Source: Serratia sp. Ag1 (GTDB taxonomy: Bacteria; Pseudomonadota; Gammaproteobacteria; Enterobacterales; Enterobacteriaceae). Taken from it: DNA of 51,039 nt. Where the stretch lies: positions 1 to 51,039 of the forward strand of contig NZ_JQEI01000007.1 in NCBI RefSeq assembly GCF_000743355.1. The letters run 5' to 3'. The translations under genes were made by a program, and so were the position numbers. Below are positions 40,066 through 50,233 of the stretch, piece by piece. Every line of letters begins with the position of its first letter. Position 1 is the stretch's first letter. The notes under the pieces are model-generated. The model was given only the letters and a program-made list of their open reading frames with translations. It ran no database searches and was not told the DNA's origin.

Positions 40066-40111
40066 GAGCTTGATGACAACAAAGTCTTTTAACCCGAGAT
40101 ACTCGGGTCTA
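40064..40111. repeat. 48-bp copy of the intergenic repeat, ending inside the kinase gene
   Basis: From CTGAGCTTGATGACAA to CCCGAGATACTCGGGTCTA it matches the first 48 bp of the element at 19352-19399, with a few changes and small compensating indels. The last three bases (CTA) are, on the - strand, the TAG stop codon of the downstream sensor kinase, whose receiver-like sequence stops here. It is a partial copy: the right half of the 135-bp element is missing. Confidence 0.75.
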
Positions 40112-41779
40112 TTCAGCCAATTGCAGCGTAACCCGGTCAGGCGGATCATCTTCTGTTACCGGGATGCGTAGATGAGCGTGTCGTGAATCCGCTGCGGAGG
40201 CCGGAATATGCGCTTTGTTGCGAATCAGGCGATCGATACCAAATCCAATGCTGCTCATGCAGTAGGCATCGATTCCTGATGGGCCTGTTTCCCCGGATAA
40301 AGAAAGCTCAAGATACCGGCTCTGCCAGTCGACGGTAACGTTATGTGGCCTGCGTGTCACGTCCAGCATCACCGCAGAGGCATCAATCGCTTCCGGTATC
40401 TCATCAACAGCTGTTGCCCGTGCTCCCCATTGGTTTAACCAAGCGCAGATATTCTCTGTTAACTCTGGATGAGGGGTGCGCACCCAGACTTTAGATTTAT
40501 GGAGTTCTGGCTTGACCGGAGGGGCTTCAAACAAGCGCCTAAATTCTAACTCGAAGAAGAATCGGCTGCCCATCATGGGTTCACTCCTGAATTGAATTTT
40601 TGTATTCATCAACTCAGCCAAGCGCGCACAGATAGAGAGCCCCAGGCCAGCGCCTCCAGCAATATTGTGTTCAGTATCGGCAAGATAGAACGGCGTGAAA
40701 AGTTTCTCTTGGCGATGTTTGCTGATCCCTATGCCGCTGTCACACACTTCCAGTAATAAACGCGGCCTTGAAGAAACGTTCTCGATCAGGCCCAGGCGCA
40801 CAATGATAAAACCTGTTTCAGTAAACTTTATGGCATTGCTGATGAGGTTATTCAGGATTTGGCGTAGCTTGGCCGGATCGCCTGCGATCTTCACGGGAAC
40901 GTCCGTCGTGACGGTGGAAAAAAGCAGTAATCCCTTACGATAAGCCATTCCAGCATAAGTGCTGGTACAGTTTTGTACTAACTCCCGTGGGTTGAATGTG
41001 GTCTGTTCCAACTGGAGTTGCCCGGCTCGGATCTTATTGATGTCCAGAATATTGCTGATAATCTGCAACAGCATTTGTGAGGCATCTTCAATCCGTTCCG
41101 CATACTGACGTTGCTGGCTGTTCAATTGCGTCATGGAAAGCAGCTCCAGCGTACCCAGTGCTCCATACAAGGGGGTGCGGATTTCGTGGCTCATGGTTGC
41201 CAGGAAGGTGGTTTTTGCTTCGTCAGCGTCATTTGCGGCTTTTCTGGCGCGGATCAGGTTGCGTTCCACTTCAGCATGGGACGTCACATCTGTGAATGCA
41301 CAAAGAATGGCGTCCTGTTGCTTATAGCGTGTGGGGGCATAAGTCACATAAAGTGTCCGCTCGCTGGAGATGTCAAACCGCTCGATCGTGCCATCTTGAG
41401 TGGCATACTGTACCAGGTTGAGCAGAGCCGCCATGGCTTCTGTGTTTTTTAATGGTTGCCCGGGCGTTGTGTCCAGCCAGTCTAGCCCCAGCGCGTTAGC
41501 AAACAGCAGGTGCCCATTATCACGGGCAATAAGGCACAGCGCCACCGGGGCAGTTTGGATCAGCGTTTGGTTGAAGGCATCGTTTTCGAGTATTTGTCGC
41601 TGGGTTTCCTGCGTGGGTAAGATCACGTGGCGGTTATGCCAGCGCATATATAAGAGCCCCCCCAGCGTGCTGAGTAATAACAGCAGCAGCGCAGCGCACG
41701 ACAGCCAGAGATTATCGTTGAAAAAGGTGGAATAACTCATCTGTTCAACACCAATCCATCTCGCATGGGCGATGCTCAC
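40109..41779 (-). CDS. Sensor histidine kinase, probably a hybrid kinase truncated at its receiver domain
   Basis: The 556-residue protein has an N-terminal membrane helix (~26-46), a PAS-like domain (~68-170), HisKA with His198 in TMSHEIRTPLYG, HATPase (NNLISNAIKFT, DSGIGI, GGAGLGLSI), and then a degenerate receiver-like spacer. The last residues (LRIPVTEDDPPDRVTLQLAE) look like beta-1 and helix 1 of a receiver domain, comparable with LRLLIVDDSPISH in the sister kinase, after which the frame stops in a repeat. GTG at 41779 directly follows the stop of the REC-EAL gene; ATG at 41740 is an alternative. It is the third gene of a signalling operon next to fimbrial genes. Confidence 0.85.
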   Translation of the reverse strand: MSIAHARWIGVEQMSYSTFFNDNLWLSCAALLLLLLSTLGGLLYMRWHNRHVILPTQETQRQILENDAFNQTLIQTAPVALCLIARDNGHLLFANALGLDWLDTTPGQPLKNTEAMAALLNLVQYATQDGTIERFDISSERTLYVTYAPTRYKQQDAILCAFTDVTSHAEVERNLIRARKAANDADEAKTTFLATMSHEIRTPLYGALGTLELLSMTQLNSQQRQYAERIEDASQMLLQIISNILDINKIRAGQLQLEQTTFNPRELVQNCTSTYAGMAYRKGLLLFSTVTTDVPVKIAGDPAKLRQILNNLISNAIKFTETGFIIVRLGLIENVSSRPRLLLEVCDSGIGISKHRQEKLFTPFYLADTEHNIAGGAGLGLSICARLAELMNTKIQFRSEPMMGSRFFFELEFRRLFEAPPVKPELHKSKVWVRTPHPELTENICAWLNQWGARATAVDEIPEAIDASAVMLDVTRRPHNVTVDWQSRYLELSLSGETGPSGIDAYCMSSIGFGIDRLIRNKAHIPASAADSRHAHLRIPVTEDDPPDRVTLQLAE

Positions 41780-49220: not shown

Positions 49221-49231
49221 GTGGAGAAATT

Positions 49232-50233
49232 ATGCGTATTATTCTTTTTTTAAGTTTTTCTTTATTGATGTTGTTTTCGAAAATGGCGGCAGCCTATACC
49301 TGTTCAACACCGCAGCCGAATTACATCAGGGGGATCCCAACAGTAACCGTGGCCCGTGATACAGCTGTTGGGGATATTCTGGGCGCTTTCTTTCCGAATT
49401 CCATCCCTTTTTCTTGTGTGAACAGTGCTCCAGCCCTGACTTATCAAGAGTTTGGTGTCAAGGCATACGGGAACTATCTCATGATGATCAATGGCAGACG
49501 GGTGTATAGCACCAACCTCCCGGGCATTGGTTATTCAGTCTATGTACTGGCTACTGGTTGTAGTGGCAGCAGTACGGCGAGCAATGTGGATGGTACAAAT
49601 ACGATAGGTGGGGACGTCAATACGCGGTTGGCATGTAAAGCCAATGGAATGATTGACCCTACTAGTATGTCTGGCACGCCAGGGATTGTGTTTTACAAAA
49701 CCGGCCCGGTTACGTCCGGGATGGTGAACGCGACAACGGTGGGGGCGTTGGTGCTGAGAAACAATCAGTCGACCTGGCAATCCCCTGAGGTAACGTTTGG
49801 GTTTTATAGCTTTTCCGTGAATTCGACAGGATGTTCTCTCAATAACAACATCGTTAGCGTCGATATGGGCAACGTTAAAAAGAGCGAATTTACCGGTATT
49901 GGTAGCACACCTGCCAGCAGTAATACGAAAGACCTGAGTATTTCCCTGTCCTGTTCGACAGGAACGCAGGTCAGTTTCCAGGTTGACGGGAATATTCAGG
50001 ATGCCGCTAATGGTCTGCTGAATCTGAACAGTGCCTCGGATGCTGCTACGGGAATCGCGGTGCAGTTGCTGTATAACAGCAAACCGCTGACGTTAGGTGC
50101 ACGGATATTGCTTAGTAATTCCTCCGCAACCACCCTGACGCTCCCGTTACAGGCTCGTTATTACCAGACGAAAAGCACGGTTACGCCAGGTGTGGCGAAC
50201 AGTATTACCACGTTAACCATGACTTATCAGTGA
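49232..50233 (+). CDS. Fimbrial tip adhesin (FimH-like two-domain)
   Basis: This 333-residue exported protein has a signal peptide ending MAAA, an N-terminal receptor-binding domain (~22-200, starting YTCSTPQPNYIRG, with three further Cys) and a C-terminal pilin domain (~215-333, starting TGCSLNNNIVSVDMGNVKKSEF and ending TLTMTYQ). This two-domain plan, its last place in the operon and its size fit a tip adhesin. The sugar or protein receptor cannot be told from sequence. ATG at 49232 follows GTGGAGAAA. Confidence 0.88.
   Translation: MRIILFLSFSLLMLFSKMAAAYTCSTPQPNYIRGIPTVTVARDTAVGDILGAFFPNSIPFSCVNSAPALTYQEFGVKAYGNYLMMINGRRVYSTNLPGIGYSVYVLATGCSGSSTASNVDGTNTIGGDVNTRLACKANGMIDPTSMSGTPGIVFYKTGPVTSGMVNATTVGALVLRNNQSTWQSPEVTFGFYSFSVNSTGCSLNNNIVSVDMGNVKKSEFTGIGSTPASSNTKDLSISLSCSTGTQVSFQVDGNIQDAANGLLNLNSASDAATGIAVQLLYNSKPLTLGARILLSNSSATTLTLPLQARYYQTKSTVTPGVANSITTLTMTYQ

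What the first reader, a model, noticed from the sequence alone, without database searches (positions are those of the whole stretch)
40109..50233. Candidate Roc-like c-di-GMP signalling operon divergent from a minimal chaperone-usher fimbrial operon
Three tightly packed - strand genes (hybrid kinase, REC-EAL regulator, second kinase; gaps of 4 and 0 bp) face four + strand genes (pilin, chaperone, usher, tip adhesin) across one 333-bp region. Pseudomonas RocS-RocR systems control Cup fimbriae in a comparable way, but an enterobacterial version fused to a four-gene fimbrial locus is not one I recognise. The two kinases share the same layout and spacer, suggesting duplication. No DNA-binding RocA-like output gene lies in the cluster, so the link to the fimbrial promoter is open.
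Basis: partly seen in the sequence, partly recalled or inferred. Interest (0 to 1): 0.75.

Follow-up and report, generated by a model that had tools for sequence, protein, structure and literature searches.

The report
Eroded fimbria-control module missing its switch
A set of genes that turns adhesive surface fibres on and off, known from one Pseudomonas aeruginosa strain, also exists in enterobacteria, and this genome carries a worn-down copy that has lost the gene for the DNA-binding switch but kept the switch's likely docking sites.

Summary
In detail: kinase, REC-EAL and kinase genes (gaps 0 and 4 bp) lie divergent from pilin-chaperone-usher-adhesin across 333 bp. The nearest known system I found is not Roc but PvrSR/RcsCB, the regulator of P. 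aeruginosa PA14 CupD fimbriae. Two other enterobacteria, one of them Kosakonia, plus Comamonas and a Pseudomonas, carry all four genes pvrS-pvrR-rcsC-rcsB complete; a third enterobacterium has them with a shortened pvrR. Against the closest relative, the window copy has three deletions: the PvrS periplasmic part; the RcsC N-terminus; and the RcsC receiver/Hpt end with rcsB. So the 'missing' output gene was lost. The RcsC remnant evolves faster than its sister; PvrS and PvrR do not. The open promoter link has a candidate: a palindrome, TAAGGN4CCTTA. In the form with A/T flanks it has four exact copies in this genome: two in this spacer and one before a second fimbrial operon, which keeps intact rcsC-rcsB. 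The box recurs before fimbrial and pvrS genes in several relatives with near-constant spacing, but not in all. I infer an RcsB-type activator site, possibly served in trans by the second locus. Binding, expression and activity are untested.

The parts
40109..41779 (-). rcsC-like remnant: second hydrophobic segment, linker, HisKA, HATPase_c; N-terminal periplasmic part and C-terminal receiver/Hpt absent
   Evidence: Pfam; matches residues 309-870 of the 1083-aa L012 RcsC at 72%; more changes on the window branch
41780..43006 (-). pvrR-like response regulator with EAL phosphodiesterase domain; Asn300 aligned to RocR Asp296
   Evidence: Pfam; NCBIfam PvrR 425.8 bits; alignment to RocR 3sy8; relatives
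43011..45095 (-). pvrS-like hybrid kinase (HisKA, HATPase_c, receiver) without the roughly 245-aa periplasmic part of its closest relative
   Evidence: Pfam; blastn break against L012 at window 44936/44943; 694 vs 940 aa
45131..45144 (.). palindrome TAAGGAAATCCTTA, pvrS-facing candidate RcsB-type box, ending 35 nt before the pvrS start codon
45206..45219 (.). palindrome TAAGGTATTCCTTA, fimbria-facing candidate RcsB-type box
45242..45247 (+). -10-like hexamer CATAAT, starting after 22 nt from the fimbria-facing box
45429..45947 (+). major pilin
   Evidence: Pfam Fimbrial
45991..46674 (+). periplasmic chaperone
   Evidence: Pfam PapD_N/PapD_C
46695..49220 (+). outer-membrane usher
   Evidence: Pfam PapC_N/Usher/PapC_C
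49232..50233 (+). putative tip adhesin (ORF opens at 49136; ATG at 49232)
   Evidence: weak NCBIfam fimbrial hits; collinear with L012

Best explanation
This is an eroded enterobacterial copy of the PvrSR/RcsCB fimbria-control module. In the intact module, by homology with published PA14 work, PvrS is the kinase, RcsC relays phosphate through its receiver/Hpt and also dephosphorylates, RcsB activates the fimbrial promoter, and PvrR degrades c-di-GMP and opposes it. RcsB-type regulators probably act at the TAAGGN4CCTTA boxes: one 22 nt upstream of the fimbrial -10 and one 35 nt before pvrS. Shown: the four-gene set in relatives, the three deletions here relative to L012, faster evolution of the RcsC remnant, and the conserved boxes. 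Inferred: that the boxes bind the RcsB-like regulator, and that the window copy can no longer run its own relay. If the fimbriae are still under this control, the intact module-type relay found in this genome is the RcsC-RcsB pair at the second fimbrial locus.
For: Order pvrS-pvrR-rcsC-rcsB in L012, L013 (Kosakonia oryziphila), L014 (pvrR without its receiver), L016 (Comamonas composti) and L017 (Pseudomonas sp. 8O) (ORFs); sizes match PA14 PvrS 931, PvrR 399, RcsC 1084, RcsB 231 aa (PMC2696094, section 5). Window DNA is collinear with L012 at 76-79% identity over 40122-50231, with breaks at the deletions. rcsB search of the own genome: best hit 69% on another contig, next 37%. Branch test with outgroup L013: RcsC remnant 73 window-private vs 34 L012-private residues (59 vs 31 after trimming, p=0.004), PvrS 55 vs 40, PvrR 24 vs 24. 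Boxes: 28 of 28 bases identical to L012 vs 174 of 299 other aligned spacer bases; with A/T flanks 4 exact copies in 5.35 Mb, 2 of them in this spacer. Nine of 11 boxes taken as fimbria-facing have a -10-like hexamer (at least 4/6) at offset 21-23; the six pvrS-facing boxes found all end 34-36 nt before the pvrS start.
Against: PvrR scores below the NCBIfam equivalog cut-off, as do the four other full-length PvrR-like proteins scanned (410-565 bits); both kinases are far below the RcsC cut-off (282 and 399 of 920 bits). No PA14 sequence was available for direct comparison, and by its locus numbers PA14 has the two operons convergent, not divergent as here. The box is inferred from co-occurrence; it matches the RcsAB consensus TaAGaatatTCcta (PMC4325325 legend) at 10 and 8 of 14 positions. 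Three of nine pvrS loci (L063, L016, L017) have no exact box before pvrS. The reversed-pattern control is also common: 12 control vs 26 true sites in the ten RcsB-bearing genomes. The pairwise dN/dS of the RcsC remnant (0.154) is only slightly above that of PvrS and PvrR (0.131, 0.120), and one of seven trimmed outgroup tests is not significant (L017, 27 vs 14, p=0.06). All three signalling ORFs remain open, so some function may persist.
Confidence: 0.78

Rival explanations
1. The window locus is a dead relic: with its relay and activator gone and PvrR perhaps impaired, the fimbriae are not expressed and the genes are on the way out.
For: Three deletions; accelerated RcsC remnant; Asn at a PvrR position aligned to a RocR metal ligand (metal role as listed in PMC7911125); EAL gene found in 1 of 7 genus genomes, its own.
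Against: All ORFs are open, and window-L012 dN/dS is 0.12-0.15 for PvrS, PvrR, pilin, chaperone and usher (0.26 for the adhesin); PvrS and PvrR are not accelerated, and PvrR has no more changes at otherwise invariant sites than L012's (3 of 67 each).
Confidence: 0.4
2. The core RcsCDB phosphorelay has taken over: core RcsB binds the boxes and the core Hpt receives phosphate from the truncated kinases.
For: A core-like RcsB is present at G000:C9 and shares the pattern RSxKTxSxQKxSAM with the second-locus and L012 RcsB; boxes keep four of the five most conserved bases and the spacing of the RcsAB box.
Against: The core HTH is 53% identical (60 aligned residues of a sequence cut at the match end) to the second-locus RcsB, against 75-97% among the seven other enterobacterial module RcsBs, though L017's is also only 54%; the boxes have GG/CC where the consensus has GA/TC. 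Inference: a core regulator would be expected to have more than 4 such sites; 127 of 383 family genomes without the RcsB-like gene have any.
Confidence: 0.12
3. A streamlined three-gene system: the sensor deletions make PvrS constitutive and the unit now acts only through c-di-GMP (PvrR), with no local transcription factor.
For: Both kinases lost the periplasmic part while reading frames stay open; PvrS keeps its kinase and receiver motifs.
Against: The RcsC remnant shows relaxed constraint; PvrS has Leu for an otherwise invariant Pro just after the phospho-acceptor His (P231L) and PvrR has D300N; no c-di-GMP effector was recognised among the locus proteins scanned.
Confidence: 0.12

Closest known systems
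P. aeruginosa PA14 PvrSR/RcsCB with the cupD fimbrial operon (PAPI-1)
   Same: PvrS and RcsC kinases with REC-EAL PvrR between them, in opposite orientation to a neighbouring chaperone-usher operon; relatives of the window also have RcsB and near-identical protein sizes. In PA14 an RcsB site before cupD1 is needed and RcsB raises pvrR expression (PMC3842833).
   Different: Window copy lacks rcsB, the RcsC receiver/Hpt and both periplasmic parts. By PA14 locus numbers cupD runs towards rcsB (convergent, as in L017), whereas window, L012 and L013 share one divergent spacer. Four fimbrial genes instead of five; PvrR below the NCBIfam cut-off.
P. aeruginosa RocS1-RocA1-RocR with cupB/cupC
   Same: DNA-binding activator opposed by a REC-EAL regulator (PMC2696094); RocR is the best sequence match among solved structures to the EAL protein (3sy8).
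   Different: A P. aeruginosa plasmid RocR is 29% identical, Comamonas and Pseudomonas sp. 8O PvrR-like proteins 45% and 39%; PvrR is the better family match.
Core enterobacterial RcsC-RcsD-RcsB phosphorelay
   Same: Both kinases' best NCBIfam match is RcsC; the module's RcsB-like proteins match RcsB best, but below its cut-off (137 and 150 of 235 bits).
   Different: Separate cluster with a REC-EAL member and fimbriae; core-like copies are elsewhere in this genome.
Second fimbrial locus of the same genome (G000 contig C8, about 98-110 kb)
   Same: RcsC-RcsB pair 62% and 69% identical to L012; the same box with the same 22-nt spacing to a -10-like hexamer.
   Different: No pvrS or pvrR detected in the fetched 35 kb; usher 37% identical to the window usher; two further DNA-binding-type proteins between fimbriae and rcsC.

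Membership tests
PvrSR/RcsCB-CupD module | pvrS-pvrR-rcsC order beside a chaperone-usher operon | tested here: met
   order shared with L012, L013, L014, L016, L017 (no fimbrial hit in the fetched L016 stretch)
PvrSR/RcsCB-CupD module | rcsB-like DNA-binding response regulator in the cluster | tested here: not met
   absent from the locus; nearest copy 69% identical on another contig; present in the five relatives
PvrSR/RcsCB-CupD module | RcsC with receiver and Hpt (relay) | tested here: not met
   window remnant ends at the start of the receiver. In intact RcsCs Pfam gives an Hpt hit only for the second-locus protein, 20.9 bits under the 24.6 cut-off, and none for L012; the two tails are 49.5% identical
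PvrSR/RcsCB-CupD module | PvrR by NCBIfam equivalog cut-off (580 bits) | tested here: not met
   425.8 bits, although PvrR is its best family
PvrSR/RcsCB-CupD module | RcsB binding site at the fimbrial promoter | tested here: inconclusive
   conserved palindrome found; binding not testable here
PvrSR/RcsCB-CupD module | PvrR lowers c-di-GMP and opposes fimbriae | not testable with these tools
   Asn at the RocR D296 position suggests, but does not show, reduced activity
RocSAR system | RocA-type DNA-binding regulator in the cluster | tested here: not met
   none among the locus proteins
RocSAR system | EAL regulator closest to RocR | tested here: not met
   PvrR is the best NCBIfam match; plasmid RocR 29% identical vs 45% and 39% for Comamonas and Pseudomonas sp. 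8O homologues

The most novel reading that the evidence does not exclude
A phosphorelay split between two fimbrial loci: the window keeps PvrS and PvrR but no relay or activator, the second locus keeps RcsC (receiver+Hpt) and RcsB but no PvrS or PvrR, and both fimbrial promoters carry the same rare box. PvrS from the window would feed the other locus's RcsC-RcsB, which would switch both fimbriae together.
Probability: 0.25. Interest if true: 0.65.

Novelty: new variant of a known kind. Interest (0 to 1): 0.47.

Why it matters
It extends a fimbria/c-di-GMP switch studied in P. aeruginosa PA14 to several enterobacterial lineages with different fimbriae (window, second-locus, Kosakonia and L014 ushers are 32-37% identical pairwise), and gives a concrete candidate operator that makes the link between signalling genes and fimbrial promoter testable. 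The window copy shows a module that has lost its own output while its promoter sites remain and a related activator exists elsewhere in the genome, so regulator replacement in trans becomes a direct question.

Tried and rejected
Roc as the nearest system: rejected on family score and identity. E. coli genomes: no DNA match, near or distant. Plasmids: no close DNA match; six records with EAL homologues only 29-31% identical; no rcsB homologue at 1e-40. A class-wide draw gave, besides the own genome, one EAL match (33% identical) in 369 genomes at 1e-60. A tRNA-linked island: ARAGORN finds no tRNA in the window; tRNA-Thr(cgt) follows proA in 2 of 6 genus relatives, so the site may be thrW, but I sought no attachment repeat.

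Unchanged boxes as proof of use since the rcsB loss: considered and rejected. From the RcsC excess I estimate (rough inference) that constraint was relaxed for only about an eighth of the branch, so unchanged boxes would not be surprising. Genome-wide box counts as sole evidence: 136 of 392 family genomes have at least one exact site, 9 of 9 with the RcsB-like gene and 127 of 383 without; many of the latter are reduced genomes and the reversed-pattern control is also frequent in that table, so I rely on position instead. The two boxes in L087 (genome G394) lack a -10-like hexamer at the common spacing (3/6 each). No structure was predicted. The window's organism was not identified. Literature: PvrR with Enterobacter, fimbria and EAL (15 papers, among them Klebsiella MrkH and Salmonella stm0551 work), PvrS with Enterobacteriaceae (6 papers) and cupD with Kosakonia (none): no listed title describes an enterobacterial PvrSR/RcsCB module; I saw listings only, except for the papers cited.
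Full report
Observation. The spacer is 45096-45428, 333 bp, 31.8% G+C; the locus 40109-50233 is 49.1% G+C against 54.0% for window 1-40000.

What it is. The EAL protein's best NCBIfam model is PvrR (425.8 bits; cut-off 580) and both kinases' best model is RcsC (282 and 399 bits; cut-off 920). The EAL gene is rare: E<=1e-40 in 4 of 392 family genomes including its own, 1 of 7 genus genomes; E<=1e-60 in 2 of 369 class genomes, the second at 33% identity. Order: hybrid kinase (about 940 aa), REC-EAL (407-408 aa; EAL only, 272 aa, in L014), second kinase (about 1085 aa), LuxR-type response regulator (217-235 aa as listed). 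In L012 and L013 the set is divergent from fimbrial genes; in L014 it follows them on the same strand. Comamonas composti (L016) and Pseudomonas sp. 8O (L017) have the same four-gene order; L017 has a fimbrial operon convergent with rcsB, L016 no fimbrial hit in the fetched stretch. These match PA14 PvrS 931, PvrR 399, RcsC 1084 and RcsB 231 aa (PMC2696094; I saw the abstract and outline, passages, and section 5). That paper says the four genes lie beside cupD in opposite orientation; from its locus numbers rcsB is next to cupD5, so the operons are convergent there. The shared divergent spacer of window, L012 and L013 is a difference.

What is missing. Against L012 the window is collinear at 76-79% nucleotide identity from 40122 to 50231 except for about 740 bp inside pvrS (694 vs 940 aa, in frame), about 960 bp at the start of rcsC, and everything after the beginning of the rcsC receiver, including rcsB. 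The remnant covers residues 309-870 of the 1083-aa RcsC. The best own-genome hit to the lost rcsB is 69% identical on contig C8 and the next 37%. By reading the sequence, PvrS keeps two hydrophobic segments joined by a short loop.

Decay. Residues changed on the window branch versus the L012 branch with outgroup L013: RcsC remnant 73 vs 34 (p=2e-4), PvrS 55 vs 40 (p=0.15), PvrR 24 vs 24. Trimming 25 residues at each end gives RcsC 59 vs 31 (p=0.004) with L013; with the six other outgroups trimmed p runs from 0.0011 to 0.06. At RcsC columns invariant in the seven other sequences and the sister, 13 of 131 changed in the window (three of them within the last 25 residues) and 1 of 119 in L012; for PvrS 3 of 139 in each and PvrR 3 of 67 in each. 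Pairwise window-L012 dN/dS is 0.154 for the RcsC remnant, 0.131 PvrS, 0.120 PvrR, with dS near or above 0.7, so these values are coarse. PvrR as a whole is thus not decaying faster, but one of its changes is D300N, which aligns with RocR position 296 (3sy8); a paper lists D296 among RocR metal-coordinating residues (PMC7911125, passages only).

The promoter link. The palindrome TAAGGN4CCTTA occurs twice in the spacer, twice in L012 at matching places, twice in L013 (one imperfect), and before fimA and pvrS in L014. Window and L012 agree at 28 of 28 box bases and 174 of 299 other aligned bases. With A/T flanks there are 4 exact sites in the 5.35-Mb genome: these two, one before the second fimbrial operon, and one intergenic site on C19. 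One search covered 14 genomes. The ten with the RcsB-like gene have 26 sites (12 for the reversed-pattern control), of which 16 lie at module or fimbrial promoters; the four without it have 3 sites (control 2). Of the thirteen other sites I looked at eight. G214, with pvrS-rcsC-rcsB, has no exact box near its locus (a one-mismatch form lies 0.77 kb before pvrS); L016 and L017 have none before pvrS, and the L017 fimbrial promoter was not in the fetched stretch. Of 11 boxes taken as fimbria-facing (L013's is imperfect, L062's faces a regulator gene, two are from L087), nine have a -10-like hexamer (>=4/6) at offset 21-23, tied best with 22-24 among the windows tried; six have 5/6; the two L087 boxes have 3/6. 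Several loci are orthologues, so they are not independent, but the window and second-locus promoters, with ushers 37% identical, share the 22-nt spacing. Of nine pvrS loci six have a box before pvrS, and all six end 34-36 nt before its start codon. The fimbrial placement suits an activator next to the -35 region; the other suits feedback on pvrS. In PA14, RcsB needs a site before cupD1 and also raises pvrR expression (PMC3842833; abstract, section 9 and passages).

Second locus. On contig C8 the genome has another fimbrial operon beside what look like flagellar and chemotaxis genes (by eye), two DNA-binding-type proteins, a full RcsC (1088 aa) and RcsB; no PvrS or PvrR was detected in the fetched 35 kb. 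Its RcsC receiver is 81% identical to L012's and its RcsB HTH 79%. RcsB-like genes (E<=1e-60) are in 9 of 392 family genomes and (E<=1e-50) 4 of 7 genus genomes, more than PvrR, though thresholds differ. In G214, G348 and G287 pvrS, rcsC and rcsB occur with no pvrR hit in the fetched stretch. So pvrR seems the dispensable part, and RcsC-RcsB with its box the core.

Mechanism. Published for PA14: PvrS is the kinase, RcsC relay and phosphatase, RcsB the activator (PMC3842833), PvrR the antagonist (PMC2696094). By homology the intact enterobacterial modules should work so. The window copy should not be able to relay on its own. Either its fimbriae are silent, or they are run by the second locus's RcsC-RcsB, perhaps fed by window PvrS. 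My data do not separate these; box retention is not decisive because the loss looks recent.

Novelty. A known kind of system in hosts for which I found no description in the searches made (held open-access library only), in a degraded form, plus a candidate operator. New variant of a known kind.

Noticed in passing
L012:1172-1834 (-): The closest relative's RcsB-like protein has Tyr where the ten other RcsB sequences compared (nine module, one core) have the receiver Asp, so its relay may also be uncoupled although its two boxes are intact.
   Followed up: partly
L014:14002-14820 (+): In genome G176 the PvrR homologue is an EAL-only ORF of 272 aa; the receiver domain is missing.
   Followed up: partly
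window 50463-51039: A LysR-type gene downstream of the adhesin is cut off and followed by what looks by eye like an IS3-type orfA with an internal stop; the contig ends there.
   Followed up: no
window 40064-40107: A dispersed repeat of about 44 bp lies between proA and the rcsC remnant; one search lists 27 further matches in this genome, one of them at window 19352-19396, and others in genus relatives.
   Followed up: no
L085:4094 and L086:4010: The same 16-mer ATAAGGATAACCTTAT lies in G000 contig C19 and G348 contig C3; in G348 it is upstream of a 226-aa ORF that by eye resembles the small LuxR-type protein of the second fimbrial locus.
   Followed up: partly
L062:10619-15879: In genus relative G273 the box sits before a small LuxR-type gene followed by another regulator-like ORF and rcsC-rcsB; no fimbrial gene was detected by tblastn in the 19.5-kb stretch.
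   Followed up: partly
L092:2688: In Kosakonia (G072, contig C116) another exact box lies upstream of two recombinase-like genes near a pilin that by eye resembles the window pilin.
   Followed up: no
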